From NCBI GenBank assembly GCA_018902385.1, contig JABSSW010000007.1:620001-684000 (forward strand): a stretch of DNA of 64,000 bases, in the 5' to 3' direction. Source of the stretch: Physcia stellaris (Eukaryota; Ascomycota; Lecanoromycetes; Caliciales; Physciaceae). Positions 1 through 60,130 of the stretch are shown one piece after another; the stretch's first letter is position 1; each line of letters opens with the position of its first letter. Position numbers and translations under genes: made by a program. The notes below the pieces were generated by a model. That model was not told the origin of the DNA, did not search any database, and saw only the letters and a program-made list of their open reading frames with translations.

Positions 1-1360
1 AGATCCTTCACAACTTGTCCCTACGCGGGCTTACTCGAGAGCATTTTCTTTTTGTAAGCCTCATCAAAGTGGCTCATTGATCAATCAACCGGTGCTCCCA
101 ATCGTCGTTGACTAGCGTCTAGCTTGCAGCCTATGATAGAGTGAGCGTTACTGGACATTGATGACTCCTGTTCTGCTCGCTTAATGCTATCGGTGTCGCT
201 CTTCATCCAGTTCTCCCTTTGTTGTTCCCGGTGTCGGACTTGGAAAATGGCAGCGGTTGTCTGACTCGGCAAACGGTCTCGTCTCACTTTTGTTCGCATG
301 AATGGCTCGTGGGAGGCTTGATCCTATGATATGGTACTGCCAATAACGTCCGAGGTCCTGTGTTGTCCTTTGTTGTCCATGAGCAAGTGTTCAGCAAGGC
401 TTGAAATTACGATTCAGCTAAGGCGCTAATGCAGGTTTATCTCTAGCTCCAGCCCGCTGAGATCCGCTGTAGAGATTTTCTGCTTAAGTAATCAGGTACG
501 GCTCTCGTTTCCTGGCTTCTGACCAAGTCGGTGCTTTATTTGCTACTCAAGAGCAGACTTCCTTACATGAGCTTCTTTACAAGGGCAGATAAATGCCAAG
601 ACTCTATCTAAGGTCATCTGGGCAGCTGGAAGTTTCCCATAGGGTGGCAGCACCATTTGGAATTACATTTAGTCTTCTCACGCCGCAACGCCACAGTTGG
701 GTGGATGATGGTCCACTCATCAGCCAGCTACAGACGGGACTGAACTATACTAGTGACCTCCCGTTTCCAATTTTTCCATTCCTCAATGTCGAAGTGGTTT
801 CATCAGCTCTCATATTCTGTGGTTCTTATCAAGCCAGGAGTTTGGAGCACTGGCATGTTGGCCTGTATTTGCTCGGTGCGGTTAATTCCAGTGATTAAGG
901 CACTTCATAGCTTCCAGGTATTCCTGCTACAAAGTGCCCGAATATCGGTACGAATCGTAAAGCATTGATTGAGCCTTCTTCAAATCAGTGGATTACTTTG
1001 AAGCTTTGAGAAGATGACGCACGACTCCCACAAGATAGTGTAAGCTGAATTTTCTCATTCGCCTTTACTTGAAGCATATAGGGCTTTCAATAACTTGGAC
1101 ACATGTAAGAATTTATGAACTTTTCGTTTACAGCTTCGTCTACACTCTATTCTGGTTTGGAACAGATCCACAGCCAAAAAGTCGCTGTCGGAGACAGGGA
1201 AAACCTTCGCTCAAGATCTTCAAGATAGCATAAATTCGTAAGCTTCATTTCTATCTTCTGAAAATCTATCTGTAAACCAGTTCGCAATCTAAATTTGCCA
1301 GTATCATCAATCGTTAATCGTCAGTATTAAGCATTACACATTAAAAATAGATGCTGAAGT
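1..1360. other. no supported gene
   Basis: Only short open frames without recognisable protein character are present on either strand. The last ~130 bases (about 1228-1360) are homologous to the sequences just downstream of the two neighbouring paralogues (around 4750-4865 and 7320-7410), including a shared run beginning aagcttcatttctat. They are therefore the 3' flank of the first tandem gene, not unique DNA. Confidence 0.5.
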
Positions 1361-1415
1361 TCAGCCGTAGAATCGAACCACTGGAAAACCGTACCAAGAC
1401 TCTTCGTAGTTAGTA

Positions 1416-3110
1416 TCAATGCTTGGTCTTTTTGGAACCTCGCTGCTTATCCTGATTGTCCCGCCTCCCCCTCTCCTCCGTCCTTCCACCCTCCTCCGTC
1501 CTTCCCTTCTCCTTCGTTCTTGAGGAAGAATGCTTCGATGCTTCACCCTGTCTATCCTTCCTTTGATCTGTCGATTTATCTCGAAGGTCCCTTGGTGGGC
1601 CTCGAGAAGCAGAGGCACTGGATCCGGAGGTAGAAGTATCCCTGGGTGTCGAGGTTCTATCGTGCTTGTGGCCTGCAAAGCGTTCTATAGAAGTGTCTGC
1701 ACGGACAAGGAAGCCCCTTTCATCGAGTCGGGGCAACGGTAATCCTATATCTTCTTCAGGGATCGGCCACTGACGAAGTTCCGCGCTGGATTCTCCAGAG
1801 GGGACTTTGCTTCTTGGAAGACCGGTAAGTTTATCTCTGGGCTCGCTATGTCCCGCTATACGACTGCGTCTCAACTCCCTGGCTTCCTCGACGCTCACAT
1901 ACTCCCTGTGGTACCACCGTATCACGTTGTCCGGCGAGTCTGACGCATATTCAGTGCCGTCTTGCCACATATAACCATACTTGTCCTCGTGGAATTTTGT
2001 TGGGATTGCCCAGACAGGAAGTCCAGTTTTTGGATTCTTGTTAGTGTCTTCCTTGTAATAATCAGATTCCATATACTCTTTTACGGCCTCTATACTGAAA
2101 TTATATTGGCTGATTCCCTCGTTCGGCCCAAGTACTGGAGATCGTACAGCCGGGGCTGTCTGGGGCGCGGACACTGGTAAAATTCGCTTGAGTTCGGGCG
2201 TTTTGTACGGAAAACTCTTCGACCCAGCATCAAAATTCATGGCATACTGAGTCCATGCAGGGTCATTGTACAAAATGGAGGTCCAATGAGTCTTCTCCAC
2301 AAGTGTTTGATCGCGAATTTGACTTTTATCGTAAATATAACGAGCTATCTGACCAATAATAGAAGGCCTTAGACTTGATGGCGATTTAGCTTCCAACACA
2401 TGAAAAGCATCACTAACGGTGTTCGGCGCCCACTTGAGATGAAGAATCGTGGAGATGATAAATTTCTGTCCGTAAATACTAACTTTCCGTGGCCGGCTGG
2501 CTCTGTCATATTTTATCAAATAGGATGGGAGTTGTGGGTCCAGCTTGATCCTAGCATAATGATGATCTTCAGGTTCGGGGATATTTTCGACCCAGAAACC
2601 CAGGCCTGGAGCTGATTGGGCAATGGCGCTTTCGAAAGCCGTTGCATTGTCTGTTCCAGTGGGGATTTGTGCTAATTGTGGTTGCGTAATGTGAGTAATC
2701 ATTTGAGCAATACGAGGATCGATTTTCTGTTTCCATTCAGGATCGTACTTTAACATGTTTTTCCAGTAGGTCGAGTTCTTGCCCCCTGGAGAAGCTGGAC
2801 GGGCAGCTTCATCTTGAATGTAACGAGCTACCTCTTCAATCAAAGTATTCGATGCTTGAAACCCAGTGGAACCTGGTGATATTTCTTTCTGTATTGAGAT
2901 AATAGTAGGGAGGAGTTTCGTTGCACCCCATTCAAGGGGGTTGTGAATCATTGTGCAGACTATGAGTTTTTGTACATCCGGTATGAAATGTGCACGATTG
3001 GGCTGCCGGTAAAACTCTATTGTATAGGTAACTTCTCCAGAAGAATGTGTCCAAGGAACCTTCGTGAGATGACGATATATTTCGGCTCCGGTGATAACCT
3101 TTTTCGGCAT
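1416..3110 (-). CDS. tandem-family hypothetical protein, copy 1 (two modules)
   Basis: A 564-aa protein read as one exon. I do not recognise the family. It contains two copies of a roughly 100-residue module (about residues 28-131 and 196-294). Each module has the pattern QK(L/F)I..T..H, then an A-R-Y-I-x-D helix, then YW/HW..IL..D..W. Between them lies a linker with TGTDNATAFESA that is nearly identical to the linker before the third module of copy 3. Near the C-terminus is a block with W-x-IP-E-ED-x-G-LPLP-x-LD, shared by all three copies. The protein ends in a Ser/Arg/Lys-rich tail resembling a nuclear localisation or nucleic-acid-binding tail. A TATA-like box lies 155 bp upstream of the ATG, at the same place as in the paralogues. 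Function unknown; a nuclear role is only a guess from the basic tail. Confidence 0.75.
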   Translation of the reverse strand: MPKKVITGAEIYRHLTKVPWTHSSGEVTYTIEFYRQPNRAHFIPDVQKLIVCTMIHNPLEWGATKLLPTIISIQKEISPGSTGFQASNTLIEEVARYIQDEAARPASPGGKNSTYWKNMLKYDPEWKQKIDPRIAQMITHITQPQLAQIPTGTDNATAFESAIAQSAPGLGFWVENIPEPEDHHYARIKLDPQLPSYLIKYDRASRPRKVSIYGQKFIISTILHLKWAPNTVSDAFHVLEAKSPSSLRPSIIGQIARYIYDKSQIRDQTLVEKTHWTSILYNDPAWTQYAMNFDAGSKSFPYKTPELKRILPVSAPQTAPAVRSPVLGPNEGISQYNFSIEAVKEYMESDYYKEDTNKNPKTGLPVWAIPTKFHEDKYGYMWQDGTEYASDSPDNVIRWYHREYVSVEEARELRRSRIAGHSEPRDKLTGLPRSKVPSGESSAELRQWPIPEEDIGLPLPRLDERGFLVRADTSIERFAGHKHDRTSTPRDTSTSGSSASASRGPPRDLRDKSTDQRKDRQGEASKHSSSRTKEKGRTEEGGRTEERGRRDNQDKQRGSKKTKH

Positions 3111-3264
3111 GATAGCGAGTGGCGATTGATTGCCGGAATAGGCTGCACACAGGAGATTCGAAGAATGGAAAGTTGGTGGTTAAATTGATAGTCTTGATAT
3201 GTTGGTAATTTCTGATGTTTGGTTTATCTGAAAAAGAGCAGAAGAAGAGCGGAGCAGCAGCAGA

Positions 3265-3272
3265 TATTTATA
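3265..3272 (-). promoter_or_regulatory. TATA-like box of copy 1
   Basis: TATAAATA on the minus strand, about 155 bp before the ATG. The same octamer, with a shared downstream run related to CTGCTGTTGCTCGCTCTTC, stands before copies 2 and 3. Conservation across three tandem units supports a real core promoter. Confidence 0.55.
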
Positions 3273-3299
3273 CACATCCAGCCGGCCGCAGCACACACC

Positions 3300-3510
3300 C
3301 TTGAGACTTCGTGATGGCCGTGCAGATATCCGGAAACATTGTGATGGTGTCTGAGCCAACGGCAATCGACTCTTGAACGCAGACATGAATCGCAAAAGAT
3401 GAAGAAATTGCTCAAAACATAGAGAAATCACTCAATCATTGGGTACGCGCGTCCACTGGTAGAGATATTGAATGAGACAAGACATGTTTCGACCCCCTGG
3501 AGGGGTGATA
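3300..3510 (-). repeat. conserved upstream tract of tandem unit 1
   Basis: Upstream DNA homologous to the tracts before copies 2 (about 6660-6945) and 3 (about 10085-10280). Landmarks are an aaac(a/g)ttgtga core (3336), a segment with ..gcagacatgaa.. near 3380, and gacatgtttcgaccccctgg at 3481-3500. The duplication unit therefore includes promoter DNA. The rest of the interval to copy 2 (about 3511-4600) shows no gene that I can support. Confidence 0.5.
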
Positions 3511-4838
3511 GAGATATCAGACGCTCCTACTTGTGAACTAGTTTAGAAAATTGGCCATCACTGTTACTGCACTACTAGAGTTTCAGGATGACCAACCTTC
3601 ACGCACTGTCACGTATAGATTTACTATGACTATCCTAGTTATATTGTCAATGAACATCTTTTTATGATGTTATGCCTTCTGTTAGCCTCTATTTCTCATC
3701 CTCCCCGTTCTGTACCTCTACCGCCTTCCTTTTCTCCAGGATCTGGCCATAGCGGCGTTGACTGCTGTTTCTGTAGAAATTTCTGCCTTGAACTATGCAT
3801 TACAGCGTTTCAAGACTTCTGAGTAGGAACGGTATTCAGATCTAACAGGTTTCATTTTATTCATTTTGCGTGTGCGTTTCACGATGATGCTACCTTAAAT
3901 GATTGGAGCTTTAGGTGATGTACTTAGTAATGCCAACCGAATCAAACGATTGCTCCAAACCCGAGCCCATCTTTGCGTTGCGGTGAAGAACAACACGTTT
4001 GGTAGATACTAGGTCATGAAGGTTTCTGAGTGATGTTGCCTGTTTCCGACGGTTTCAAGGATCGTTTGAGTGACAAAACCTCAACATCATCGACACAATC
4101 ACAAATTCAAGCCTATTCATCAATCGCCTGATGATGTTGGGGATCAATAACGAAGAAACCACGTAAGTATTACCCCTTTGCTCGTCTAGTGAAGAGTCCA
4201 GCCGAAATTTGGTTATATAATGCCCTAACCCTACCCAAAATATAACCAGATTTAGCAGGACTGTTCACCTGACGAACAAAGAATCCTAATGGTCACCATC
4301 GTCGAATGAATGTACTAGCGAGATTGTGAAACTCTTGTTAACGTAAGAGCTCTCCATTCGGGTTCTTGGTATTTGATTGTCGCCGTCGCCGCTTTCTGGA
4401 TTCTGGGCTCAGGGAACGATGCGATTAATAGCACATGAGATCACATATCCCGCGAAAATTGCTGAGAGTTTAGTCGTCTTCTAGTGATAGTTGGAGAGTT
4501 TCCCAAAAAGATCTAATGTCAATCAAAATTTATACCTTGGATTGACAGCATTGAGCGAAAAAGGAGTGTGGGTAGTAAATCGGGATATGGATCCATCAAT
4601 TGCCTTATCACTAATAGTGCGCATGATTATTGAGAGCGTTGTCAGACAATACTTGTCTGATTTCATGTGGATACGTAATACCTACCCTGCAAACTCTTTG
4701 AAAGTAAAGTCGGAGAGCATAATGCACGGTATCGAATTGCAGATCATAGCATAAACACGCAAGCTTCATTTCTATGTCATAAAAGTCTATCTGTAAAATC
4801 AATCTGTAAAGCAAAATGCCAGCATCAGTCGTCAATCA

Positions 4839-6494
4839 TCAAGGATAATACATTACACATTGAACATTGATTCTCGGCCATAGGATCGATTCATCGAGAT
4901 ATCGCTCCATGCATCCTCGCAATCGTCTATGCTTACGCCTCTGTCTGTCTGGCTGCTTCCCTTCCGCCTTTGTCAACTCCCTCCCGGACGAAGATTGGCT
5001 CCTGGGATCTACCTTTGACGAAGAACGGCTCGACTGTCCCTTTTGTCCCCCTTGTTGACGCCCCCTTTGCTTTGTCCCCCCATTACCTCTTGAGCTTGTA
5101 GATTCTGGGGTACCAGACGATGATTCTCTAGCGCGCTTATGGCTTTCTGCAGCGGGTGGAAGTTCATCCGCTATAAGGAAGCCGTCCGTTGCAATCGCGG
5201 GCAATTGTTTCCCTACATCGCCGCTAGGAATTGGCCACCAGGCTTTGTCTCCCATTGAGTCCGAGGATAGTCCAGACTCGACCACTTCATAAGGAAGAAA
5301 ATTTGCAGGATTCATCGAGAGGTCAGAGCTGTGCTTCTCTTTCCATTGTTTGGCATACTCTGCACTGAAATAAGTTCTGTGATTTGCTTTTATTGTCCCG
5401 GCTGATGGGGGTTGATGGATCCGCCCGTCGGGATTTCGTAGGACCGGTCTGCCAATTTGATTATCATAGCGCGGCGCTTCTTGAAAACGTGGGGGATCTA
5501 TGATAGGTGGCCTGCGGCTTGTAAAACCCCGATGAGCATCCCATAATTCGCCATAATCTAACCAGCGGTAATCGTACTCCATTATGTGAAACCAATATTC
5601 TCTCTCCTCGAGGGTATACGTGTTTGCAGGGTCCACATGTTTTAGGACTTGTATCACGATGTAACGAAGTATCTCCAAACTTCCGGTCATTGAGAGATGC
5701 GATCTTTCAAAATCATCAGGGAAGAATTCACGAGCAGGATCAATGGCTCTTTTTTCAGTCCAAATAGAGGGGTGGTAGAAGACTGTGCAAATTAAGAATT
5801 TTTGAACCTCTGGTCTTACTTTCATTCTTCGGCGTAGTGATATTATTGATATATCATAGAAAGTGTATCCGGAAGAGTCTTTTCTGGCTGAGATTCCGTA
5901 CTTGGCTTCTAACTCGTCTGTAGATTTCAATCCAGGTCGATCACGGAGGCCTTCGACGGCTTTTGTCCAATCAAGTCCCTGTGGGCGATTGGGATTGTAA
6001 TCAGGTATCCCACAGTAGAAATGGTCTAGTCCTGTTTTAACGAGAATTGGCATACCAGCTAGAGATGCCTTCGTGTAGTCTCGATCTCTCATGACCCAAT
6101 CACACCATTGGTCGTCACGTCTTGTGATGGCTTCCCAATAGAATATTTCCGGTTCATTTCCACTTTGATGGGATTTTTGAGCTGAATCATAGATATAATC
6201 AGATATCTCTTCCATATGTTCCGCGCTAGGTAATAGTGGTTCTCCGGCATAATCCAGGATCCCCTTGATAGCACGAGCGACGTGTGCCTTATTACAATCG
6301 GTGTAGTTGAGGGCACAGAATATGAACTTTTGTACCCTCTCCTCCAAAATCCTGGGGGGAGTCTGGATTTTCCGGATAGCACGTCCTGATGATCGTCTAT
6401 AGTAAGACCATGATATTGGGCAGGTGACGCCAATGCCTACGGCAGAGACTTTGCTCGAATGGGCGATTGTGACTCCCAAACGTGGTTCGGCCAT
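4839..6494 (-). CDS. tandem-family hypothetical protein, copy 2 (two modules)
   Basis: A 551-aa single-exon protein, paralogous to its two neighbours but the most diverged. Modules lie at about residues 25-136 (VQKFIFC..., ISDYIYD, YWEAI..DDQW) and 209-320 (VQKFLICTVFYHP, LRYIV, YWFHIMEYDYRW). The C-terminal block is present as WWPIPSGDVGKQLPAIATDG, followed by KRARESSS and a Gln/Arg/Ser-rich basic tail. The final ~28 codons correspond to sequence that is 3' untranslated in copy 3. The stop that ends copies 1 and 3 after the basic tail is thus missing here and translation runs on into old UTR. The ATG follows a conserved TATA box at 136 bp. Function unknown. Confidence 0.72.
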   Translation of the reverse strand: MAEPRLGVTIAHSSKVSAVGIGVTCPISWSYYRRSSGRAIRKIQTPPRILEERVQKFIFCALNYTDCNKAHVARAIKGILDYAGEPLLPSAEHMEEISDYIYDSAQKSHQSGNEPEIFYWEAITRRDDQWCDWVMRDRDYTKASLAGMPILVKTGLDHFYCGIPDYNPNRPQGLDWTKAVEGLRDRPGLKSTDELEAKYGISARKDSSGYTFYDISIISLRRRMKVRPEVQKFLICTVFYHPSIWTEKRAIDPAREFFPDDFERSHLSMTGSLEILRYIVIQVLKHVDPANTYTLEEREYWFHIMEYDYRWLDYGELWDAHRGFTSRRPPIIDPPRFQEAPRYDNQIGRPVLRNPDGRIHQPPSAGTIKANHRTYFSAEYAKQWKEKHSSDLSMNPANFLPYEVVESGLSSDSMGDKAWWPIPSGDVGKQLPAIATDGFLIADELPPAAESHKRARESSSGTPESTSSRGNGGTKQRGRQQGGQKGQSSRSSSKVDPRSQSSSGRELTKAEGKQPDRQRRKHRRLRGCMERYLDESILWPRINVQCVMYYP

Positions 6495-6629
6495 CTCTGG
6501 AGCACGCTGGTAAGTAATAATTAGAGGTAGGCTGTCAAAATAGTTGATTGAAATGATAGTTGTAATATTTTGATAATTTCTGTTCTGATATATGAAAAAT
6601 AGAACAGAAAAAGAGCGAGCAACAGCAGT

Positions 6630-6637
6630 TATTTATA
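6630..6637 (-). promoter_or_regulatory. TATA-like box of copy 2
   Basis: TATAAATA on the minus strand, 136 bp before the ATG, within the same flanking context as in copies 1 and 3. Confidence 0.55.
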
Positions 6638-6679
6638 CATGAAAATTTGATCGCAATAAGAAATTGAGATTTTGTGATC

Positions 6680-6835
6680 ATCATATTCATTTTCAGAAAC
6701 GTTGTGACGATCAGGTGGATGGCTCCCCAACAGCGCATCACGGGTATATCTTTTGGTGATCCTTGTGTCTACCTCCAAAGACGTTGTGACGGCCAGGTAG
6801 ATGGCTCCCCGACAGCGATTGACAGTTCAACGTAG
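6680..6835. repeat. 82-bp tandem duplication upstream of copy 2
   Basis: Two adjacent copies share acgttgtgacg, then a ca-ggt-gatggctccc run. The core acgttgtgac begins at 6699 and again at 6781, a period of 82. The same core occurs once before copy 3 (10115) and, changed, before copy 1 (3336). It may be a promoter element or simply a tandem duplication. Confidence 0.65.
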
Positions 6836-7029
6836 ACATGAATTTCTGATGGTGGGAACTTCGCCTGCTTGTTCAGCATTTGGCTGTACTAGGAAATTAA
6901 TGAATTGGACTTGACATGCTCTGATCCCTGGGAGGCTTTCAGATGTGTGAAATCTGTCTCAAAGATCCAGAATTCTCTATTAGCGAGTCAATATATTGTG
7001 GTCTGATTCGCCTGAGACTAGGTGACTCG

Positions 7030-7315
7030 ATTGTGCGCGTGCTTCTGCATCAATATCTCTAGCACTGTGTATGTCATCAGTCACATATGGAACAATATGT
7101 CTGATATCACACAGATAGCACTCATCGTAGTAAAGTACGCTTATGTGAAGACTTGCTGGATGATACATCAGTGGTTTGATCAGTAATATTGCGCATGAAT
7201 ATTGAAACGTTGTGACAATAATTGTCTGATTTCATATAGATAGTATCTACTGTGATGAATCTAGCAGAATGTGAAAGCCGACTTGAAAGTGTACAGTATC
7301 GGATTGCACAACATA
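7030..7315. repeat. two diverged ~150-bp repeats upstream of copy 2
   Basis: One unit begins attgtgcgcgtgcttctgca at 7030 and a more diverged one begins with attgcgcatg near 7187. Both are related to the two units at 10371-10660 upstream of copy 3. A single related segment lies at about 4612-4760, just downstream of copy 2's stop (between copy 2 and the upstream region of copy 1). Confidence 0.5.
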
Positions 7316-7463
7316 GCTAGATAAATTCGCAAGCTTCATTTCTATGTCGTAAAACTCTATCTACAAATCAACATGCACAATAATAATACATTACACATTG
7401 AACATTAATGCCCGGCCATAGGATCGAACCATCGAGGTATCGCACCACCCATTCTCGCAATCA

Positions 7464-9863
7464 TTAATGCCTGCGCCTCTGTTTCTCTGGCCGCTTCGTG
7501 TGCTCCCTCCTCGGCTCCTCCCTCCTTGAAGAATGGCCCGATGAACCCTGGGCTCTATGGCTACTACCGCTTCTCACGTCGCCTTGATTAGGCCTCGGGT
7601 CCGGAGATGCAGAGGCACCTCGTTCGGGAGACTGAGACAAGGACGCTGAGTCTCTAGCGCGCTTGTTACTTATGACGAAGGGGTCGTCGAATTTCATATC
7701 GAGGAGGCCATCTTTATCGAGAACGGGCATCGGTAGCCCGATATGTTCTTTAGGGATATCCCACTGATGAACAGGGTTTCTCGAATCCATTTTGAATCCA
7801 GATTCGACGAATTCTTCAGGTAGAACTTTGTAGTGTTTCCTTAAGGCGCTAGCGTACTCCACAGTAACATAAAGTTTGTGGTTGTTTTGTATTCGTGGCG
7901 GAGATGGGGGACCTGTTTGACGGTGAGAGAGGGGGTTCGGCGGTCCCACACTCCGATTGCTAGTAGCGGTGAGGGGGTTCGGCGGTCCCAGACTCAGATT
8001 GCTAGCAGCGGTTGTCGTTGCAGTCATAAGTGTGTTTCGGCCGCCGGATTCATCAAGGCCGCGGTGTGTTCGTGATTCTAGTCTGTGTGTCTGGGTCTGA
8101 GAGGCTGGGTTGTAAGTGTTAAACGAAGTGTTTGCTACGGAACTGGAGCTGGATGCGACTGGTTCAGGTGCGGGGATCGGTAGCTTTCGCTCGATTTCGG
8201 GTTTTTCGTTGGGGAATCGCTGAAATTGTTCAAAATGCGAGACATAACGTGTCCATGCGGGATCATTGAACATAATGCTGGTCCAGTGAATTTTCTCCTT
8301 GTACGCTTTGTGATGGTCTAGACTTTGATCGTAGATGTATAGAGCTATCTGATTTATGAGACGACCAGTCCAAATTCTGCTTCTGCTTCCTCTTCTCTCC
8401 ATCTCCTGAAGAGCTTCAGCGACATCTAGCGGTTTCCACTTGAGATGGAGGATTGTGGAAATTATCAATTTTTGTCCATATTCATCAAGACGATGTGGTC
8501 GTCGTTCTCCTATTAAATAGGTTATCGTATAAGTATCGTGTTCAGGTTCTGCATTGATCCTGTGATACTGTGCATCATCACGTGCGGCTAAGAGTGTGAC
8601 GTGAAAACCTATGCCTGGGCGTGATAGGATGCGGGCACTCTCGAAAGCCGTTATCGTGTCTGTCCCAGTCGGTAATGTTCGTGCTGCATGCGTTGGCGGT
8701 GGTGCTCGTGCTGCTTGCGGTGGCGGTAGTGCTCGTGCTGCTTGCGGTGGCGGTGGTGCTCGTGCTGCTTGTGGTGGTGGCATTGAAGTCAAATGGCTGA
8801 CTAGATTGCCGAATTCATCACAGTCGTATTGTTCTGGTGGCGGTTGATATCTCGGGTCGGCATAAGGGTTGTATATGTGACCAGGGGTTTGTTGACTTGT
8901 TGAATGACGTTGTAACGTGGGTATCTGAGTCTGAGAGAGTGGGTCATGAATGTTTTCGCGGGGGTTTGCTACGGCAGGAGCTAGAGAAGGCTTTGCATTC
9001 AGGAAACGCTTTGTGGCTCTATTGAAGCTTTTGGCATAATCTGACCATGCTTGCTCATTGCATAGAATGATTTTCCAGTGGTCATGCTCCGGCCCTGTTT
9101 GTTGGGTGCGACTTCTGTCCAGAATGTAACGAGCAAATTGACCACAAACAAGAGCAGTCAAGTATCTATTTTTGATGCCTGTCGTTGTCTCAAGAGGCTC
9201 AACGACATCCTTCAAAGGTGACTGCATGTGGAAAACCATGCACATTAGTAGTTTCTGTCCATGCGGTCCCAGATCCAATTCTCGGTCGGTCAAGAATAAC
9301 TCGTAAGTCGACGCTTTCGGTCTAATAGAGATTCTCCCTTCATACTTCGGATCAATTTTGGGAACGTGCTTTTGCAACAAAGATTGTATAGAGGCACTAG
9401 GATAAGACATGTGGGGGGGAAAACAAATTGGTGGTCGTGGACGCCCAAATGTCTTCGTGTAGTTGTCGAAAGCATCGACGAATGTTTTCCATTCCTGATC
9501 TTCGGATAGAATGGTGTTCCAGTAAGCGGTTTCGGGATCCTGAGGGTCTTGACGGGCTTGTAACTTGATGTATTCAGCTACCCCACGAACGACAGGAGCT
9601 GTCATGAATTGGCCATTGTTATATAGTGTTTGCTGTAATGGAATGGCAAGCGGTAAGACGTCGCTCGCGCGCCAGCTCTTGTGGAGATACGTGGTGGCTA
9701 TAAGCTTTTGTACACTTGCCCCGACAAACACATCTCGGCCACTCCTGCGAAATTCTATCTTACAGCTAATGGTTGTAGGAGATTCTAGAACCGGGAAGTG
9801 GTTGAGATCTACCTCAATCTCTCTCTCCTCTTCAGGTCGCCCACTCCGTCGATGAGCGGACAT
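7464..9863 (-). CDS. tandem-family hypothetical protein, copy 3 (three modules)
   Basis: A 799-aa protein starting at the ATG of MSAHRRSGRPEEEREIEV. The same frame stays open upstream to a TTG at 10193, but that stretch contains the TATA box conserved in all three copies, so I exclude it. Three modules lie at about residues 32-136, 185-284 and 444-546, each with (G/V)QKLI, a YI.DQS-type helix and W..I(L/M)..D..W. A low-complexity linker of PPPQAARA repeats (about 361-396) precedes the third module. The conserved C-terminal block (WDIPKEHIGLPMPVLDKDG) and a Ser/Arg-rich basic tail follow. This is the longest copy: its third module and preceding linker match module 2 of copy 1, so copy 1 could be a shortened version. 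Function unknown. Confidence 0.75.
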   Translation of the reverse strand: MSAHRRSGRPEEEREIEVDLNHFPVLESPTTISCKIEFRRSGRDVFVGASVQKLIATTYLHKSWRASDVLPLAIPLQQTLYNNGQFMTAPVVRGVAEYIKLQARQDPQDPETAYWNTILSEDQEWKTFVDAFDNYTKTFGRPRPPICFPPHMSYPSASIQSLLQKHVPKIDPKYEGRISIRPKASTYELFLTDRELDLGPHGQKLLMCMVFHMQSPLKDVVEPLETTTGIKNRYLTALVCGQFARYILDRSRTQQTGPEHDHWKIILCNEQAWSDYAKSFNRATKRFLNAKPSLAPAVANPRENIHDPLSQTQIPTLQRHSTSQQTPGHIYNPYADPRYQPPPEQYDCDEFGNLVSHLTSMPPPQAARAPPPPQAARALPPPQAARAPPPTHAARTLPTGTDTITAFESARILSRPGIGFHVTLLAARDDAQYHRINAEPEHDTYTITYLIGERRPHRLDEYGQKLIISTILHLKWKPLDVAEALQEMERRGSRSRIWTGRLINQIALYIYDQSLDHHKAYKEKIHWTSIMFNDPAWTRYVSHFEQFQRFPNEKPEIERKLPIPAPEPVASSSSSVANTSFNTYNPASQTQTHRLESRTHRGLDESGGRNTLMTATTTAASNLSLGPPNPLTATSNRSVGPPNPLSHRQTGPPSPPRIQNNHKLYVTVEYASALRKHYKVLPEEFVESGFKMDSRNPVHQWDIPKEHIGLPMPVLDKDGLLDMKFDDPFVISNKRARDSASLSQSPERGASASPDPRPNQGDVRSGSSHRAQGSSGHSSRREEPRREHTKRPEKQRRRH

Positions 9864-10045
9864 GATACTGAAAGACCACTTGACTTCGCAATCAAAGGCG
9901 GCAGATCGGTTTCCGAAGCAGGCTATTAAGTAGTAAGTAATGATGGAATGACAAAATGGTTGATTGAATGGTAGTTGTAATACTTTGGTAATCTTTGTTC
10001 TGGTTTTCTGGGGACAAGAACAGGAGAAGAGCGAGCAATAGCAGA

Positions 10046-10053
10046 TATTTATA
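10046..10053 (-). promoter_or_regulatory. TATA-like box of copy 3
   Basis: TATAAATA on the minus strand, 183 bp before the chosen ATG and flanked by sequence shared with copies 1 and 2. Its position decides the start codon of copy 3. Confidence 0.55.
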
Positions 10054-10104
10054 TACAACGAATTGGCCGCATCACGGAAAAGCCATTTGGTGATCATCCT
10101 ATCC

Positions 10105-10160
10105 ACCTCCAGAAACGTTGTGACGGCTGGGTGGATGGCTCTCGAGTAGAGGAATTGACT
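10105..10160. promoter_or_regulatory. single copy of the shared acgttgtgac element before copy 3
   Basis: Contains agaaacgttgtgacggc and then gggtggatggctc, matching both halves of the 82-bp duplication before copy 2. It sits about 60 bp upstream of the TATA box. It is a candidate activator site by conservation only. Confidence 0.4.
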
Positions 10161-10370
10161 GTTCAATGTAGACATGAACGCTTGGTGGTGCAAATTTCAC
10201 ATGCCCGTTAAGCATTTGGATCGACGGTAGACTGATGAACAGGACTTGACATGTTTTGATCCGAGAAGCCGCCAGGTATGTGGCTGGCGAAGTTTGCCTT
10301 AAAGAATAAGGATTCTTCTCCGAGCGAGCAGATGAGTTTTAGTCCAAATCGCCTAGTACTTGATATCTCA

Positions 10371-10660
10371 ATTGTTCGCGTGCTCAAGCATCGAGAGAAA
10401 TCAGGATTGCATGGGTCAGCAGCAGCATATGTTAGAATGTGTCTAATCTCACATGGATAGCACTCATTTTTGTGAAGTGCTTTGATGTGAAGGCGTACTG
10501 ATTGATGTCCGCTCAATTGTGCGTCTGCTCGAGCATCAACATATCTAGGATTGTGTGGGTCAGAAACAGCATATATAATAATGTGGCTGATGTCACGTAG
10601 ATAGCACTCACTCTGATGAAGCTCTGTGATGTGATATTGTACCAGATTATGTTCCGTATT
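10371..10660. repeat. two ~145-bp direct repeats upstream of copy 3
   Basis: The first unit begins attgttcgcgtgctcaagca (10371) and the second attgtgcgtctgctcgagca (10516), a period of 145. Both contain a run like ..ggatagcactca.. / ..agatagcactcac.. and a following gtgatgtgaag-type segment. Related units lie before copy 2 (7030-7315). Confidence 0.65.
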
Positions 10661-10864
10661 GAATTGCACATCGTGGATAGGTGGAGTGAAGAAAGATCAC
10701 TTTTGGGAATTCCGAGGGCTGACTTTTCAGCACTGACAGCATCAAGCGATAATGATGAAACTTCCTAGAGTTGGGCAGATCACTAAGTAGTATGAACATG
10801 TCTGAACAACAGCGCATGCATCACCGGATATTCCTTCAGCTTTCCCTTGCTCTTTATGAAATCT

Positions 10865-11527
10865 CTAGCCTGTGGATGAAGCTTCACTCTTCGGTTGGAC
10901 GAGCTCCTTCATCTTCCGTTCTTGGCTGATTCTGGGTTCTCCGTTTACTGCACTCGATGGTGATTCTCCCGTCCTCAGACCCAAACCCTTCACGGCTCTG
11001 TCTCTGTCCCCTTGCAAGTCACGCAGCTTGAGATCTGCAGCAATGATCTGTTCGATAATTTGCAGACGAAGTGAAGCGTTGAGCGCATTGTCTCTGATCG
11101 CTATGATCAGTCGTCCATCACTAGCCAGCGGGGAATAACAAAGGAAGGAGACCATCGCATGGAGAGTTCACACATCCAAGCAGAGACTGGTAGAGGAAGA
11201 GAACTCGCCTCGCGAACCTTGAATCTCTTCGTTCGTTTCTCTGACGTCTCAACATAATGATCAAATTGCTCGCCAATCTTCTCGAGCTCTTCATTATAAC
11301 ATGCTCGACACCTCCCTGGCATATTGATGTATGTCACATTGTTCTTCGTCAGAACACTATATCACCATGCGACCTCGCCTTTTCGATCACTTGCGTACTC
11401 GCGTGCAGCTGTCCGCACCAGTCGAATCAGCATTCATTTCACAGCGTGCGCACAGCTGGCTAGACCGGATGTGCGGGCAATTGATGTGGAGAGTGACAAT
11501 GCAGCTAAGTGGTTTGAAGCCTGACAT
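10865..11527 (-). CDS. small Cys/His-rich coiled-coil protein (paralogue of 12311-12793)
   Basis: Proposed exons are 11399-11527, 11205-11343 and 10865-11100 (introns 55 and 104 nt). They close in frame to a 167-aa protein. The N-terminal part has C-x8-C-P-H-I, further Cys residues (LCARCE) and, in exon 2, a C-x2-C (GRCRACY). The rest is a charged helical segment. The order C..C-x-H..C..C-x2-C and the length match the 160-aa gene on the opposite strand 0.8 kb away, so I infer a diverged paralogous pair. The type resembles the many short fungal proteins that begin MC..(Y/F)..C(G/S)H and probably bind a metal. The second intron is less certain than the first; a different splice choice would alter about 15 residues. 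Confidence 0.5.
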
Positions 11528-12310
11528 TATGATGAAGTTCGGTGGACGGAAAAGCCACTGGAAGTGATTGACGGACAAGTAGATACCTATGAGTGAGCCT
11601 TATGAACTGGTTGAAGTGAACAGTTGCCAGAGAAATGTGGGTAGGAAAAGCGAGCAAGAGGCCGGCGTTTGTTGGAAAGAGATAAACCGAGGGCAAGCCA
11701 CTTCAGGTAGCTAAATGAGTGGACGGTGAACAGAATATGATTCAGAGCGGAAGACTTAAGCTGGATGAGTAAGAACTAGACAATTGTCGTTTGTAGTGCG
11801 TAAATTATTCAATAGGTGCTTACGAGTGAGAGGGCATCCTTCACGGATGAATTTTAAGTCACCACTTCCACAACTCAAAATGTCCCCTACCAGCATCGCC
11901 AGATATTTGACATGTCCCTCCTGAAGACTTTGATATGCTAGGCGTACAGTGTTTGGCATCAGTAACCTTGCCGACGGCCACCCTCTTCGTCAACATATCT
12001 AGGAATTCTCAGATGGTGCGGATTTTGACAATGACTAGCCGTATGTACTAAGAGCCGTGAGCGAGAACAAAGGGTTGACGACAATGACCATTCATGGTAT
12101 TCGCCAAAGAAGACAATGCAAATTCGGCCATTGTGTTTAACAAAGGGTTAAGTCGAGATGTGGACTTAAATATCTCTCCAACGCTGCTGTCGCTGTTGGA
12201 AAATCCAAAAGTTTCTTCCGTCATAAACACTGCCTATACCAACTACCAGAGCTACAGCATAAAAATCGTCAAGCAAGTCTTGCTTCCCTCCGTACTCAGA
12301 ATATCCCAGG
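11528..12310. other. divergent intergenic region
   Basis: A shared upstream region between the two small Cys/His-rich genes. Short open frames on both strands lack coding character. I see no strong regulatory site. Confidence 0.4.
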
Positions 12311-12793
12311 ATGTGCCGGGGTAGAGCCCAGATATATCGCGGTTGCAGTCATATCAAATCAAAGACTGTCACTCAGGTCTGTCAAGCAGGCTTCAACTCC
12401 GCAAGTAAACGCTGCGCTGATCCTCGAGGCATTGTTCGATATGAAGGGGTCTGGATAGAGACTCCGTCTCTTTGTTTCGATTGCTTCTGTACAAAGAGGG
12501 ACACCATGGTGGCTTCCCACAAAAGAGTTATCGACAACCTGAACAATCAGATCGGTAAGACAGATGCAAAGAGGGAAGCGGAAACTGTAATCCATGAGGC
12601 ACATTTGGCAAGGGCGAGAACCGAGTCGCAGACCGGAAACGAATATAAGAGACACGCGAAAGAGCTAATAGCTTTGCACTCAAAGTACGCGCATCTTGGG
12701 GAGGAGGTCAAGAGTGCGGAAGTGAGGCACAAACAGGAGCTCACTCGATTCTTTGAATCCATGGGACTCTCAGCTGATGGCCAGAAGCTGTAG
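12311..12793 (+). CDS. small Cys/His-rich coiled-coil protein
   Basis: A 160-aa single-exon protein beginning MCRGRAQIYRGCSH. Residues C2, C12, H14, C24, C35, C55, C58 and C60 could form a zinc-binding head: C-x9-C-x-H, then C-x2-C-x-C. From about residue 65 to the end it is a charged, heptad-like helix (HKRVIDNLNNQIGKTDAKRE and on). No signal peptide is visible, so it is probably intracellular. This MC..Y..CSH start is common among unnamed fungal proteins of unknown function. Its divergent neighbour on the minus strand has the same layout. Confidence 0.65.
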   Translation: MCRGRAQIYRGCSHIKSKTVTQVCQAGFNSASKRCADPRGIVRYEGVWIETPSLCFDCFCTKRDTMVASHKRVIDNLNNQIGKTDAKREAETVIHEAHLARARTESQTGNEYKRHAKELIALHSKYAHLGEEVKSAEVRHKQELTRFFESMGLSADGQKL

Positions 12794-13350
12794 TCCAAGG
12801 CTGTTAAAAGGTGATGTCCAAGGCCTGATCCCCTTATGTATTTGCTCGCTCGGCTAGGCCGTATAATGACAGAATAAACACTACCTGGTTGAATACAGCG
12901 AAATGTGCCTTGATCATAGCGCTTATCTCAGAGATTCCAAGTTTTCCACAAGTTCTTACGGAATATGGTATCGTAACCCCTGTCATCATGCTGTGTTTCA
13001 TTAGATTGCGTAATTGACAGCCTGCTCTCGGTTTTCTAGATCTCGTGATGCTAAATTGAAGAGATCAAACTCGAAATTCTCCTGTGACGATCAGAAAGTA
13101 AACTCATGTTACGCTTGACGATTATTGATTCGGATCTTGTTTGAAAGGGGGTTGGTGGTAAGTTTGATAGGTTTCGTTCCGTAGAAGCCGAAAAAGAGAG
13201 ACTAACGCGTCTACACGGCCGAGAACGAAAACATCCAACAATGAGTCGTGTGCTTTCCCATTTGATAGCTCGTTTCGCAGTATGTAGTTTTTTGTGTCGA
13301 GAAGAGTGCACACCGTGGTTCTGGGCCCTGGGACTACTTCTCCTACCCTA
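12794..13350. other. convergent intergenic region
   Basis: Lies between the ends of the plus-strand Cys-rich gene and LYS4. No coding-like frame is visible. Confidence 0.4.
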
Positions 13351-15877
13351 TCAGACGCCAGTTGCTATTTCATTCTTGACCCACTTCTCCAGGCCCCCTC
13401 TTGCAACGATTTCTTGTACGTTCGGAGGAAGCTCTCCAACCTTTTGACTCCACACTGGGCCACTGGGGCCTTCTTGAATCTCAACTCTACTTCTTGCAAC
13501 GTCCCAGACAAGCTGCCAGCCAGTCCTACGTGTTAGTTGCTTGTCCTGCTTTGGCGTGGTCTGAGGTGCTGGGGGAGGCGAGTCCAGAGATTCCCAATTA
13601 CCCGACGTTTCCTCCATGTTCTGTTGTTCAGCTTTAGGCTCAGTTGTAGAAAATGTTTCTCTCAAACGCCGAACTAGCCGAGGAACTTCAACACCCATAA
13701 GTGCATTATTGATACTGTTGCGAGAGAAGATGTTTCCAAAGCTACCAGCGACGACTAGTGGGATCCTTTTCGCCAGAATGGCTGTCGCTGCTTGCTCTCT
13801 GGAGCTACCACAGCCGAAATTGAAGCCTGTGACAAGGATGTCGCCCGCCTTTGCGATATCAGCGAAATTTTTGTCATAATTCTCCATGCAGACTGTTGCC
13901 ATCTTCTCCACAGTAACGTCATCTTGGTATGTGTACTTGCCAGGATATATACCATCAGTGTTGATATTGTCTGCATCGCAAAATATAATTTCCCCCTCAA
14001 CTTTGCTAGGGAATCCGGGGAGGATCTCGGTTAATGAGTCACTATCAATCGCATCGCTTGATGTTTTCTCTGCAAAGTCTCTTTCGGCACTCTCAACAAT
14101 CCCATCTAACTGGCCAATCACCTTTTGCAAGGCCTCTTCAGCAGTGATCATGCGGTCCTCTTCCTTTATTCCATCACCTTCGCCCATAATAACACCAGTC
14201 CAGCCATCTGGTTGCTCGTATGTTCCAGGCCCAGAAATCTTTCCGCACAATGCGCTCGCAGCAACAACTTCTGGGCTGGCGAGATAGGCTTTGGCATCTG
14301 TAGAACCCATGCGGCCTTTGAAGTTGCGATTACTTGCGCTTATCCCAACTTCGCCAGGCTCTAGAAGGCCAGTACCAAGGCCTATACACGGCCCACAACC
14401 GGACGGCAAAGGTAGTGCTCCAGCTTCCAACAATGCCTGCCAGTCACCGGCTTCTTCAGCGGCTAGCTGCTCTGGCATGGAAGCAGCTGCGATGTAGAAT
14501 TTCACACCTCCGGCTATTTTCGGGATTACCCCTTCATTGGCCTTTGCAGCATCTTTGAATACTTTTGCTGCTGATGCAAGGTCAGAAGCACGACTGTTAG
14601 TGCAAGACACTAGGTAGGCTTTATCGAGCTTAAGGTTTTGGGTAGACAGCTCTTGCAAAGGAGTAGCCACTTTGACGGAATTGGGTCCTGAGACGTACGG
14701 CGACAATGTGGAAAGGTCTAAGTGTAGAACTTTTGCGTAGTTTGCTCCTCGATCTGCAGACAAGTTTTTTCGGTCTGAAAAAAGCTCGTCAAGCCGTGGA
14801 TGGGTAAATCTTTTGACGGTTGTCGCTTGACCCAGCGCTGAAGTCTGATGCAAAGCGGCTTCAGTGGCTTTGTATCTAAGCCAGCCTAGTAGTACCGAGT
14901 CGACGGGAAAGATGCCAGACAGGGCACCCCATTCGGTGGTCATATTGGCGATAGCTAAACGATCGTCAACGGCCAAACTTCGCAGAGTCTCTTCTGACCC
15001 AGTGAACTCAATCGCATGGTTCAGGACCTCATCATTGTTGAAGAGACCACAGAGTGCAACAATGACATCTTTTCCTGTCACTCCTTTTGGCAGCGTTCCA
15101 AGGAAATTGACATTGGCTATCGGAGGTACCTAGATTAATGAATCATGCAGCCGAAGATGACCCAGGTGGTTCGCTTACCTGCCACCATGTCCGGCCAGTA
15201 GCCCAGATACTAGCAGCATCTGTTCGAACTACTGGCGTTCCCAGACATGATATACCTCCGTACATGTTGGAGTGGCTGTCTGAGGCAACCGCGAGTGTTC
15301 CGGGCCAAGCGTAGCCTTCCTCGACCATGATTTGGTGGCCAATCCTACATCTTATGAGCCGTATGTCTAGGTTGTGACCAGCTTTCCATACCCTCTACCA
15401 GCTGGATAGAAATCCACCCCTTGCTGCTTTGCGAATTCTTCAATCTTTTCGTATTTCTTGAGATTGGACGCACTCTTGTTTTGAACGTCGTGATCCAAAG
15501 TCATCACGATCTGATCAGGATTGTGGATCTTGGAAGCACCGATTGACATGAATTTGGTAGCTACGGGCCAAGAATTGTCGTGGGTCATGCATTTGTGTGG
15601 TGATAATGTGACATAATCACCAGACTTGACAAATTTGCCTTCTGGGAGCCCATGTGAATAGCGCTGGACGATCTTCTCGGTCAAGGTCTGGGGCACTGAA
15701 GGTATCCTGAGTGAGGAGAGGATCTCAGCGGAAGACGAATCCTCCACTTGCGCGTGGAAGGCATCTTGACAGCGGCGTGTGGTGGAAGTGTAGGTCCGTC
15801 GCAGGAGCAGAGAGTATCGGTGTCGCTATTCCAGATTAGTACATACTGGAGGGTGGGCAGAAGGAGCTTACTAGCAT
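13351..15877 (-). CDS. LYS4: homoaconitase, mitochondrial (lysine biosynthesis)
   Basis: Acts in the alpha-aminoadipate pathway of lysine synthesis, hydrating homoaconitate to homoisocitrate in the mitochondrion with a [4Fe-4S] cluster. Exons by splice reading: 15872-15877 (only ATG CTA), 15392-15825, 15179-15344 and 13351-15129. Introns are 46, 47 and 49 nt. Frame closes to 794 aa. The spliced N-terminus, [20 protein letters not shown], is Arg/Ser/Thr-rich and without acidic residues, as expected for a mitochondrial presequence. Aconitase-family signatures are clear: [22 protein letters not shown] (cluster Cys ligands) and [10 protein letters not shown]. The C-terminal swivel ends with [12 protein letters not shown]. 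It shares a 421-bp promoter with SER1, containing a TGACTCA site. Confidence 0.95.
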
Positions 15878-54330: not shown

Positions 54331-54750
54331 GTAACAAACATTTTCGTTTTTATCGCAACATCATTAGTTCAACAATCAATGTTTTGTTGATTTCGTCAAC
54401 ATTATATAATTGACGTACAATGCAAAATGTTTGAAATCAAATCGATTCGATCACAATTTATCGATTTTGAAATCAACGCGATACGATTATATTTGAAAAC
54501 ATCATTTTCAAAAAAAGCATACATCAAACGAAAACATTTTTTGTAACAAGCATTTTCGACTTTATTGCATTACAGTCAGTTTCGCATATAACGTTTTCTT
54601 GTTTTCGTTCAAAAATCATTTTTGACGTACGATGAAAAATGTTTGAAATCAAATCGATTCAATCATCGTTTTTAGATTTTGAAATCAACGACATACGATT
54701 TTTTTGAAAACATTATTTCAAGCAAAAGCAAACAACAGACGCAAAATATC
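54331..54750. repeat. ~212-bp direct tandem repeat, two copies
   Basis: gtaacaa(a/g)cattttcg begins at 54331 and 54543. Later landmarks gacgtac(a/g)atg and aaatgtttgaaatcaaatcg and attttgaaatcaacg recur in the same order. A degenerate third segment with acgacgtacga lies near 54820. Confidence 0.65.
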
Positions 54751-57380
54751 ATTATCATTTTTTTTTATCATCGTTGCTCGAAATTTCAACAATTCGATTT
54801 TGTTATTGTAAAATTATCAACGACGTACGATTGAATTCGTTTTTACAAATTTCGACTAATTAATCGTTGACAATTCGTTGTTTTTGTTCATAATGATTTG
54901 ATCACATCAAAATGACAAACAATCAATTTTTCGCATTTTTCACAATCGTCGAAACATTTCATTCGAACGAATCAATTGAATTTGTTGTATGACACGACAT
55001 TTTTGAAACAAAACATGACGTTTTCATAATTTACGTCGAAAATCATGATTACAACATCAAAATCAAACGATCAAAAATCATTTAATTATGAAAAATGATT
55101 CAATCATCAAAAAACGTTTTAAAATTACGCTTGAATGCGATGAAAATTGTTCATGAAAAATCACATGTTACAAAAACGTTCGTGCGACGCAATGAAAATT
55201 CACGATTAAAACGAAATTTCATAATCATTCGTTCGTTTCAGCGAAGAATTTTCGTGTACATCACAAACATCAAATGACAAACGAAGTTCGAAAAAAAATC
55301 GCAATTGCAAACGAAAAAAATCAATTTTTTGATCGACAAATTCAATTTTCAATTTAACAAACATAAACATGATTTCGATCGAAATTTTGAATGATTTGAT
55401 CACGAATCATTTCAATCATTTTTTCATTTCTCAAAACATTTACAATGCGAAGAAGAAAATCAAAACGCAAAAATTGAACATTGACATTTTTATGAAAATT
55501 TTGTACGACGTTTTCGATGTCGATTTTATCAATTGATTTCGACATTTTCGCGATACGAAATATCACGATCGTTTGAAAAAATTTTTTTTTGTCAACAGAT
55601 ATGTCGCTCAATTTTTATTCAAAAATTTCGAAATTTTCGTGCTGAATAGCATTTGCAAAATCAAACAATACGAATTGTCGATGTTTGTTTTATTGAAACA
55701 AATTTCATTAGACATTAGTTTTTATTGAGATTTGACTTTTATTAATACGAAAAATAGAACGAATTTGACATGAATGATGAAAAGTATCGATCAACTATAT
55801 CGACAATTAGATTTTCAATTTTTTCTCGTAATCGTTTTCATTTCGAGTTGAGTATTGTTCGAAGTTCTCGAATTTCGATATTCAACAACAAACATTTTTC
55901 TTTTCATTTATCACATGAACAAGAAAATTCGAAAACATTGCAAACATTTTTTCAACGATAACAAAATCGAACAAAAATGACAACAATTCATGAAACATTG
56001 ATTCGAAATTGTTCACGTTTTCATTCGTGAAAATTACAAATTAATTTGAAAAAATTTGAAAAATAAATACGAACGTTTTTATCGCGACGAAATCGTGTAT
56101 TTGCGCAAAATTTGATTTGATGTTTCATGACGACGTTATTTTCGCAATTACAACATCAACGACATGTTGCATTTCAACGTTCATAAATTTTTTCGAATTG
56201 AAAACGATCATCGCATTTTGAAACAAATGTTCAAATGTTTCATTGACAATATAAAATTTGTAATCAAACGTTTGAAAATTTTATTTCTTAAACAATATGA
56301 AAATTATTTCGAAATCGTTGAATAAATTCGAACGAAATCAACAATCACGAAATTTAATCGACAATTCTATCGCAATCTGTTTATTCGAATTACATTTCAC
56401 GTTTTGCACAAAATCGAAAAACAATACAGACGATTCATCAAAATCAAAAAGAAATCGAATACATATTTTTTTGAATCGTGTATTGACACTCACAGTATCA
56501 CAACAAATATTTCGTGTGTTCACAATATACGAAACATTTTGAAACAATTCGAAATCAATCAATCTGAAAATGCATCGTTGTTTTCGTTTGAATTGTTTCA
56601 TTCTCATTTGAGAATGTTAAAATCTAAATTTTTTTTCATCACATCGAAATTTGATATCATTTCGTTTTGAAATTCATTGATCACGCACGTCGACTCGAAC
56701 TCGAATTCGAATTGAAATACTTTTGACAAAAAAAACGTTTTTTGACGTAAAATACGTGTTATGAAATAGTCGCGATCGATTTCAATCACGTTTCGTTTTT
56801 TTTTCGTTTTATCGATTGACGATGAAAACGATGCTTTCAATTCTGATCGTGTTTTTGATGATAATGATATCGTCGATGTTGATCGAAATGACGATTTTGT
56901 TGTCAATGATGACGATGTTTTCGATGTTGACGATAATGACGAAAATTCAATTGTTGATCATTCGAATGACGATGTTTTTCGAATTTTGTTCGTGTTTTCG
57001 ATAATGATAATGTTTTCAATTTTGTTCACGACGAAAACAATGTTTTTAATTCTGATCACGTCGATGATACTGACAATGTCATGAATGTTGATTATATTTT
57101 CGATATTGACGACGTCGACGTTATTGAAATGACAAACAAAAAATTTGCAATCATCGAATTGAAAAACAGACATCGAAAATCACAAAACAAAAACGACACA
57201 ACAATTCGAATCAAAAAACGAAAATCAAAATTCATCGATCGAAATTTTTCTGATCATGAATCGAAATTTTCAAATATAACAATTCGAAACAAAAAGACGA
57301 AATTGATCGAAATCAAAATTACACGAAAAAAAATTGTCAAAATGACGCAATCGATTGAAACTCAAAATACATTAAAACGT

Positions 57381-57440
57381 GATCGAGATCGCGATGATCG
57401 AAATCGCGATAATCGAAATCGCGATAATCGAAATCGAAAT
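57381..57440 (+). repeat. 15-bp minisatellite
   Basis: Unit aatcgaaatcgcgat repeated about three to four times with small changes. It encodes an RDRN-type run in one frame, but that is a product of the repeat. Confidence 0.7.
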
Positions 57441-59869: not shown

Positions 59870-60130
59870 AAAATCATAACAGAATAAAAGCGATGTGATA
59901 ATATCGTGAAAAAAAAAAAAAAAAATCATGATTGAATAAAAACGAAATAATCGTTTGAATTGTAATCGTCTAAACGAAATTGAAAAGAAAAAAACAAAAA
60001 AATCGTGACATGATAAAAACGAAATGATCGTTTGAATTGTGATCGTTTAAACGAAATAAAAAAAAAAAAAAAAAAAAAATCGTGACAAAATAAAAACGAA
60101 ATAAACGCACGAACGAAAAAAATGAAAAAA
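59870..60130. repeat. ~76-bp tandem repeats with poly-A tails
   Basis: Units begin aatcatgattgaataaaaac (about 59924), aatcgtgacatgataaaaac (about 59999) and aatcgtgacaaaataaaaac (about 60077), with a shorter related unit before them. Each is preceded by an A-rich run. Confidence 0.6.

What the first reader, a model, noticed from the sequence alone, without database searches (positions are those of the whole stretch)
1416..10680. Tandem triplet of an unrecognised multi-module protein family
Three minus-strand genes at a ~3.4-kb period encode proteins built from two, two and three copies of a ~100-residue module (QKLI..T..H / YI.D / YW..IL..D..W), a shared C-terminal W.IP.ED.G block and a basic Ser/Arg tail. 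I know of no named domain with this pattern. Tandem expansion beside a gene-poor zone is typical of fast-evolving accessory families.
Basis: partly seen in the sequence, partly recalled or inferred. Interest (0 to 1): 0.75.

Follow-up and report, generated by a model that had tools for sequence, protein, structure and literature searches.

The report
Orphan modular fungal gene family
Three neighbouring fungal genes, with at least two more relatives in the same genome, encode probably nuclear proteins built from repeated copies of a compact domain that matched no domain or structure searched here, so the family is real and unnamed but its job is still unknown.

Summary
Genes A (1416-3110), B (4839-6494) and C (7464-9863), minus strand at ~3.4-kb spacing, are open over 564, 551 and 799 codons and carry 2, 2 and 3 copies of one ~125-residue module, a W-x-I-P block and a basic Ser/Arg tail. 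Pfam, NCBIfam, PHROGs and PDB gave nothing credible. The model of module A2 is confident (pLDDT 87, pTM 0.84: three strands, five helices), yet its best PDB match by Foldseek has E=1.1. Two more members turned up: E (one module, 1.8 kb left of A, other strand) and D (contig C18, one module, frame broken). The five share a TATA motif, fitted to them, that occurs 11 times in 44 Mb. Flanks of B are better preserved than its module-coding DNA, and B-C flanks show excess C/T differences at CpC. Most likely these are intracellular, nuclear, multivalent binding proteins; the ligand is unknown. 'Beside a gene-poor zone' is not supported: the AT-rich island starts 44 kb away. That island is itself remarkable: it holds no CC or GG. 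Other fungi could not be searched here.

The parts
1416..3110 (-). Gene A, 564 aa, two modules
2667..3032 (-). Module A1
   Evidence: (E 4.5e-15 with module consensus)
2190..2537 (-). Module A2 (modelled, pLDDT 87, pTM 0.84)
1707..1823 (-). W-x-I-P C-terminal block of A
1419..1685 (-). Basic Ser/Arg tail of A, net charge +10
3258..3272 (-). Shared TATA core promoter motif of A
4839..6494 (-). Gene B, 551 aa, two strongly diverged modules
6045..6386 (-). Module B1
   Evidence: E 3.2e-10
5490..5867 (-). Module B2
   Evidence: E 1.3e-14
5121..5390 (-). W-x-I-P block of B
4926..5150 (-). Basic Ser/Arg tail of B with KRAR, net +12
4839..4925 (-). C-terminal extension of B into sequence homologous to C's 3' flank (the stop found in C is absent in B)
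   Evidence: match to C runs through 1 TGA and 1 TAA; D2 repeat
6623..6637 (-). Shared TATA core promoter motif of B
7464..9863 (-). Gene C, 799 aa, three modules
9414..9785 (-). Module C1
   Evidence: E 1.1e-20
8979..9350 (-). Module C2
   Evidence: E 1.2e-20
8190..8561 (-). Module C3 (modelled with extra N-terminal residues, pLDDT 71)
   Evidence: (E 8.0e-30)
7644..7892 (-). W-x-I-P block of C
   Evidence: query
7467..7679 (-). Basic Ser/Arg tail of C with KRAR, net +9
10039..10053 (-). Shared TATA core promoter motif of C
6495..7463 (-). B-C spacer: homologous to C's 5' flank and, at its other end, to B's 3' flank; part of the flanks with excess C/T differences at CpC

Best explanation
This is a small family (at least five genes) of intracellular, probably nuclear, multivalent binding proteins. 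Each is made of one to three copies of an undescribed, independently folding ~125-residue domain: a beta hairpin plus a short strand packed with five helices; Q-K, Y-I, W and W are invariant in the seven window modules. In A, B and C this is followed by an acidic W-x-I-P block and a disordered-looking basic Ser/Arg tail. Shown: the genes, the module copies, a confident model of one module, the extra members D and E, the shared core promoter motif, and the copying of gene-plus-flank units. Inferred: the modules bind partner molecules, copy number tunes valency, the basic tail sends the protein to the nucleus or to nucleic acid, and the shared TATA promoter co-regulates the set. The array evolves by duplication and divergence; B is the copy with the most altered coding region of the three.
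For: ORFs far longer than chance. Module homology in 20 of 21 pairs over the shuffle maximum. Confident best model from seven window sequences. Tails basic and poor in hydrophobic residues (2-7%), KRAR in B and C, KKTK in A; no 19-residue stretch of mean hydropathy above 1.11. Five of the 11 genomic occurrences of TATAARTAWCWGS are the promoters of the five members, against 65 occurrences of the reversed pattern; the motif was written from these five, so inclusion is circular, but its rarity is not. Four of five hits of the first pattern were family promoters. pN<pS in at least 997 of 1000 bootstraps for A2-C3, C2-C3, Bt-Ct and At-Ct.
Against: No expression, localisation or ligand data. Module net charge runs from -1 to +9, so nucleic-acid binding by the modules is not indicated. 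A1-C1 shows no clear constraint (pN>=pS in 108 of 1000 bootstraps). Silent-site estimates disagree: 36 of 77 four-fold sites differ against module pS 0.56-0.78. D has a broken frame and B lacks the stop present in C, which could mean decay. Member E keeps the two W but not Q-K or Y-I. The five AlphaFold models of A2 range from pLDDT 54.6 to 87.1. The nuclear role rests on motif-like tails only.
Confidence: 0.4

Rival explanations
1. The modules are a divergent winged-helix or Myb-like DNA-binding domain, and the genes encode sequence-specific regulators.
For: Several sub-threshold Foldseek hits are helix-turn-helix-like by name or by recall: UFL1-DDRGK1 (probability 0.57, TMq 0.42, 3.1 A over 70 columns), CadC DNA-binding domain, TRF1 telomere factor, TbiB1. 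Nuclear-like basic tails.
Against: The best of 105 matches (50 shown) has E 1.1; among seven modules only A2 (+9) and C2 (+5) are clearly basic and B1 and B2 are at -1; no Pfam family reaches its cut-off.
Confidence: 0.2
2. An orphan family in decay: duplicates under weak or no constraint, retained by chance.
For: D has a broken frame; B lacks the stop present in C and B1 has the longest module branch, B2 the third longest; A1-C1 shows no clear constraint; four-fold sites are hardly more diverged than replacement sites (36 of 77; pN 0.35-0.55).
Against: Three ORFs of 551-799 codons stay open; pN<pS in 24 of 24 pairs as point estimates and in 4 of 5 bootstrapped pairs; the core promoter motif is kept in five members; Q-K, Y-I, W and W are invariant in the seven window modules.
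Confidence: 0.2
3. Genes captured from, or domesticated from, a mobile element or virus.
For: Dispersed copy D on another contig carries flanks homologous to those of A on both sides, so a gene-sized unit has moved; no cellular domain is recognised.
Against: Only five members found in 44 Mb, a lower bound; no inverted repeats of 30 bases or more reported in window 1-14000; no credible transposon, phage or viral match (for protein C only); D is flanked by ORFs that look cellular to me by recall.
Confidence: 0.08
4. Secreted host-interaction proteins (effectors) of a plant-associated fungus.
For: Strong divergence between paralogues and tandem arrangement.
Against: Mean hydropathy over 12 N-terminal residues is at most 0.38 (A), 0.67 (C) and 1.83 (B); 63-91 kDa with basic tails (no signal-peptide predictor was run); not in an AT-rich compartment.
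Confidence: 0.05

Closest known systems
Gene families with untranslated DNA better conserved than coding DNA (for example the sea anemone BDS set, PMC3853724; abstract and passages seen)
   Same: Flanks of B align better with those of A and C than its module-coding DNA does.
   Different: There KA/KS>1 is reported; here pN<pS as point estimates in 24 of 24 pairs, the discord concerns B, and these are large proteins without an evident signal peptide.
Winged-helix / Myb-like domains (PDB, sub-threshold Foldseek hits)
   Same: Small alpha/beta domain with a helical core; partial superposition over 70 columns on UFL1-DDRGK1.
   Different: Best E 1.1; TMq 0.42 at most in the 50 rows shown; no sequence support.
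Repeat-induced point mutation (RIP) of duplicated DNA in ascomycetes (PMC4352252, PMC2621366; passages seen)
   Same: C/T differences with a strong dinucleotide context in duplicated flanks; C5-methyltransferase matches at three places in the genome.
   Different: Context is CpC in the flanks and CpC plus CpT in the islands; the passages read describe CpA as the usual dominant target, with CpT or CpG as further or, in some species, predominant ones.

Membership tests
Any Pfam-A family | Profile score above the curated cut-off | tested here: not met
   0 families for 3 whole proteins; 7 modules: best SWIB E 0.072 and PAC3 E 0.16, each in 1 of 7; module consensus: TPR-S E 0.3, 12.1 bits against cut-off 27.6; C-terminal block of C and protein E: 0 families
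Any fold in the PDB | Foldseek E <= 0.001 | tested here: not met
   0 of 54 matches (weaker model) and 0 of 105 (confident model). VIA-align was not available
Winged-helix DNA-binding proteins | Significant structural match to a winged helix | tested here: not met
   Sub-threshold only
Winged-helix DNA-binding proteins | Sequence-specific DNA binding | not testable with these tools
   needs a binding assay
Transposon or viral proteins | Match to a phage or viral protein family | tested here: not met
   PHROGs best E 0.23; BFVD best E 0.57 (weaker model only); phage records no match for protein C; the viral-contig scan could not run
Transposon or viral proteins | Terminal inverted repeats, target-site duplications, high copy number | tested here: inconclusive
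   No inverted repeats of 30 bases or more in 1-14000; five members found; target-site duplications not tested
Secreted effectors | N-terminal signal peptide | tested here: inconclusive
   Simple hydropathy shows none in A or C and a moderate stretch in B (1.83 over 12 residues); no dedicated predictor
Lineage-specific tandem paralogue family | Tandem copies with shared flanks | tested here: met
Lineage-specific tandem paralogue family | Absence from other lineages | not testable with these tools
   No fungal collection is held here; the search for related loci could not use the alignment

The most novel reading that the evidence does not exclude
The module is the founding member of a new domain fold used as a 1-to-3-copy binding array in a fungal nuclear protein family. 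The array is shaped by an unusual CpC-directed, RIP-like mutator that leaves its footprint in the duplicated flanks, while coding bodies escape by divergence and selection.
Probability: 0.2. Interest if true: 0.75.

Novelty: new variant of a known kind. Interest (0 to 1): 0.5.

Why it matters
If the model holds, this is a compact, confidently predicted domain with no recognised relative in the libraries searched, in a small family with a ready-made series of 1-, 2- and 3-copy proteins under one core promoter motif. That is a good handle for assigning a function to an orphan domain. The flanks also hint at a mutation process that removes CC/GG from duplicated DNA, which would make the context of RIP-like mutation in this fungus directly testable.

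Tried and rejected
Known-domain search: Pfam, NCBIfam, PHROGs, PDB by sequence, PDB and BFVD by fold; only chance-level matches. A weak MutL C-terminal coincidence (sequence E 0.74; Foldseek E 6.4) was set aside as chance. PADLOC was not used.

Further members: three weak genome matches to the module consensus (C9:832070-832330, C6:732987-733190, C40:19238-19414, E 0.18-0.87) lie on contigs without a hit of the shared motif. I could not read them, so they are neither counted nor excluded.

Flank-versus-silent-site test: my first reading, that silent sites of the modules are saturated and so older than the flanks, was not upheld on the multiple alignment (36 of 77 four-fold sites). I dropped the claim that coding bodies are demonstrably older. 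The local aligner inflates identity: it gives 66% for the A-C coding match, where codon-guided identity is 60% (A2-C3) and 52% (tails). What stands is the same-aligner contrast for B.

Literature searches for the family or a like case (listings only) gave nothing specific; two searches listed no paper. An orphan family cannot be found by name. The sigma-70 scan is meaningless for a fungus; tRNA and Rfam scans of the window found nothing.
Full report
SETTING. The window is G000:C7:620001-684000 of a 44-Mb assembly in 147 contigs. The species is not given and I did not determine it. No fungal collection is available here, so nothing below speaks to presence in other fungi.

OBSERVATION. They are far longer than the 218-aa maximum of 200 random sequences of like composition. 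A module HMM finds two, two and three copies (built from them). Shuffle tests support 20 of 21 pairs; B1-B2 fails. C3 and A2 are closest (47% identity). In a nine-row tree, in which D1 is half a module, C3 and A2 stand apart from the rest with low support (internal nodes 29-71, except D1+E1 at 86); B1 has the longest branch, E1 the next, B2 the third.

NOT A TRIPLET ONLY. A weak match to A on contig C18 (E 0.07) proved real: D (L010) has one module in two overlapping frames, a Pro/Gln-rich linker and an R-K-H-D-R-D-S-T tail like A's H-K-H-D-R-T-S-T; its first piece finds module A2 at E 0.0019, and the module consensus finds both pieces at E 0.0007 and 0.001 (D was among its rows). Within the module the frame changes, so D is broken or mis-assembled; I left it so. 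A profile without E scored a plus-strand ORF just left of the window, C7:619033-619605, at E 0.01. E has one module and a related TATA element, but keeps only the two W of the invariant positions. Protein E as a query found only itself, so its membership rests on the profile, its position 1.8 kb from gene A, and its promoter.

PROMOTER AND FLANKS. TATAWATANCTGCTR occurs five times in the genome (reversed-pattern control also five), four of them 60-190 bases before the starts of A, B, C and D. TATAARTAWCWGS, widened to include E, occurs 11 times (control 65), five at family promoters. With one aligner throughout and 100 shuffles, B and C score z=74 upstream, 1.9 in the first 700 bases of coding DNA, 25 in the last 700 and 37 downstream. 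A and B show the same pattern (21, 0.3, 6, 14). A and C do not to that degree (31, 9, 23, 11; whole coding region 75). So the discord is a property of B. The leader stays alike up to B's start codon, and similarity then falls off. Of ten gene pairs, upstream scores exceed 30 shuffles clearly for those among A, B, C and D; of the four pairs with E, B-E and C-E exceed the shuffle maximum, A-E and D-E do not. Downstream, E exceeds the maximum only with A, by a little, and C-D does not. Flank homology of A and D across contigs suggests that a whole gene unit was copied. B reads past the place where C stops, into sequence homologous to C's 3' flank.

CONSTRAINT. By Nei-Gojobori counts pN<pS in 24 of 24 pairs. 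I bootstrapped five of them: A2-C3, C2-C3, Bt-Ct and At-Ct are clear (0-3 of 1000 reversed), A1-C1 is not (108 of 1000). Four-fold sites at matched codons differ in 36 of 77, summed over six pairs that share sequences, so the ratio is uncertain and may be near one. I claim weak-to-moderate constraint, not positive selection.

STRUCTURE. Two AlphaFold runs used window sequences only. Module C3 with extra N-terminal residues gave pLDDT 71.3, pTM 0.64. Module A2 trimmed to the core gave pLDDT 87.1, pTM 0.84 for the best model; the five ranged from 54.6 to 87.1. Topology: three strands, then helices at 27-39, 44-55, 64-78, 85-95 and 99-106. Foldseek against the PDB found nothing with E below 1.0 (best 1.0, 1.1); BFVD was searched with the weaker model only (best E 0.57). 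Helix-turn-helix-like entries among the sub-threshold hits are a lead only; for UFL1/DDRGK1 I saw the words winged helix only as counts in a search listing.

FUNCTION. The tails of A, B and C are basic (+9 to +12), nearly free of hydrophobic residues, and carry KKTK or KRAR; the W-x-I-P blocks are acidic (-2 to -5); module charge varies from -1 to +9. I infer nuclear, multivalent binding proteins with an unknown ligand. This is a commitment at 0.4, not a demonstration.

MUTATION FOOTPRINT. Where the neighbouring base is the same in both copies, aligned B-C flanks show C/T differences at 28 of 37 CpC sites against 72 of 254 at CpA, CpG and CpT together (Fisher p 4.5e-8; C to A/G differences set aside). 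The A-C plus A-B flanks, which share A, show a weaker excess (17 of 32, p 0.03), and A-C plus B-C coding DNA none (28 of 123, p 0.08 in the other direction). CC+GG is mildly low in the B-C spacer (o/e 0.71) and upstream of D (0.67), below the 5th percentile (0.73) of 56 comparison windows; C's 5' flank (0.76) and the A-B spacer (0.88) are within it. This matches in kind the AT-rich islands on the same contig, where CC and GG are absent: 0 of each in C7:676001-704000 and in C7:520001-530000, CT/AG at 0.10-0.11 of expectation, CA 1.25-1.27, CG 3.8-4.0. In the passages I read of PMC4352252 and PMC2621366, RIP favours CpA in most fungi, with CpT or CpG in addition or predominant in some. Loss of CpC and CpT with CpA and CpG kept was not in those passages, nor evident in the listings; that is a limited search. 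C5-methyltransferase matches lie at three places in the genome (four matches, two of them close together on C5). I infer that a RIP-like process touched the duplicated flanks; alignment choice and the small number of CpC sites are the main weaknesses.

VERDICT. A real, unnamed modular family, wider than reported, with a probable new domain. Its evolutionary kind (tandem duplication and divergence) is familiar; the domain is not. Interest 0.5.

Noticed in passing
window 54501-64000 (continuing to C7:704000, L036-L037); also C7:520001-530500 (L026-L027) and about C7:753001-757500 (L042-L043): AT-rich islands (20-33% GC in the 500-bp blocks shown) with sharp edges. C7:676001-704000 and C7:520001-530000 contain no CC and no GG, almost no CT/AG, but normal-to-high CA and CpG about 4 times expectation: cytosine survives almost only before purines. 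The third island has one CC in nine blocks. It looks like a saturated RIP-like mutator acting at CpC/CpT, unlike classical CpA RIP. In my view at least as interesting as the finding itself.
   Followed up: partly
L035:7009-8163 (-), C7:617009-618163: ORF of 384 aa with GYPVQP repeats and a charged, basic C-terminus, head-to-head with member E; a TATAAATA element lies upstream. No Pfam match. May belong to the same cluster.
   Followed up: partly
   Followed up: no
window 10415-10650 and 7073-7164: A ~92-base element present twice in tandem (144-base spacing) upstream of C and once upstream of B.
   Followed up: no
window 57081-57608: A 175-codon ORF inside the AT-rich island with RDNRNRDN-type repeats, probably a by-product of the biased composition.
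   Followed up: no
window 12311-12793: 160-aa ORF with a Cys/His-rich N-terminus; only sub-threshold Pfam matches.
   Followed up: no
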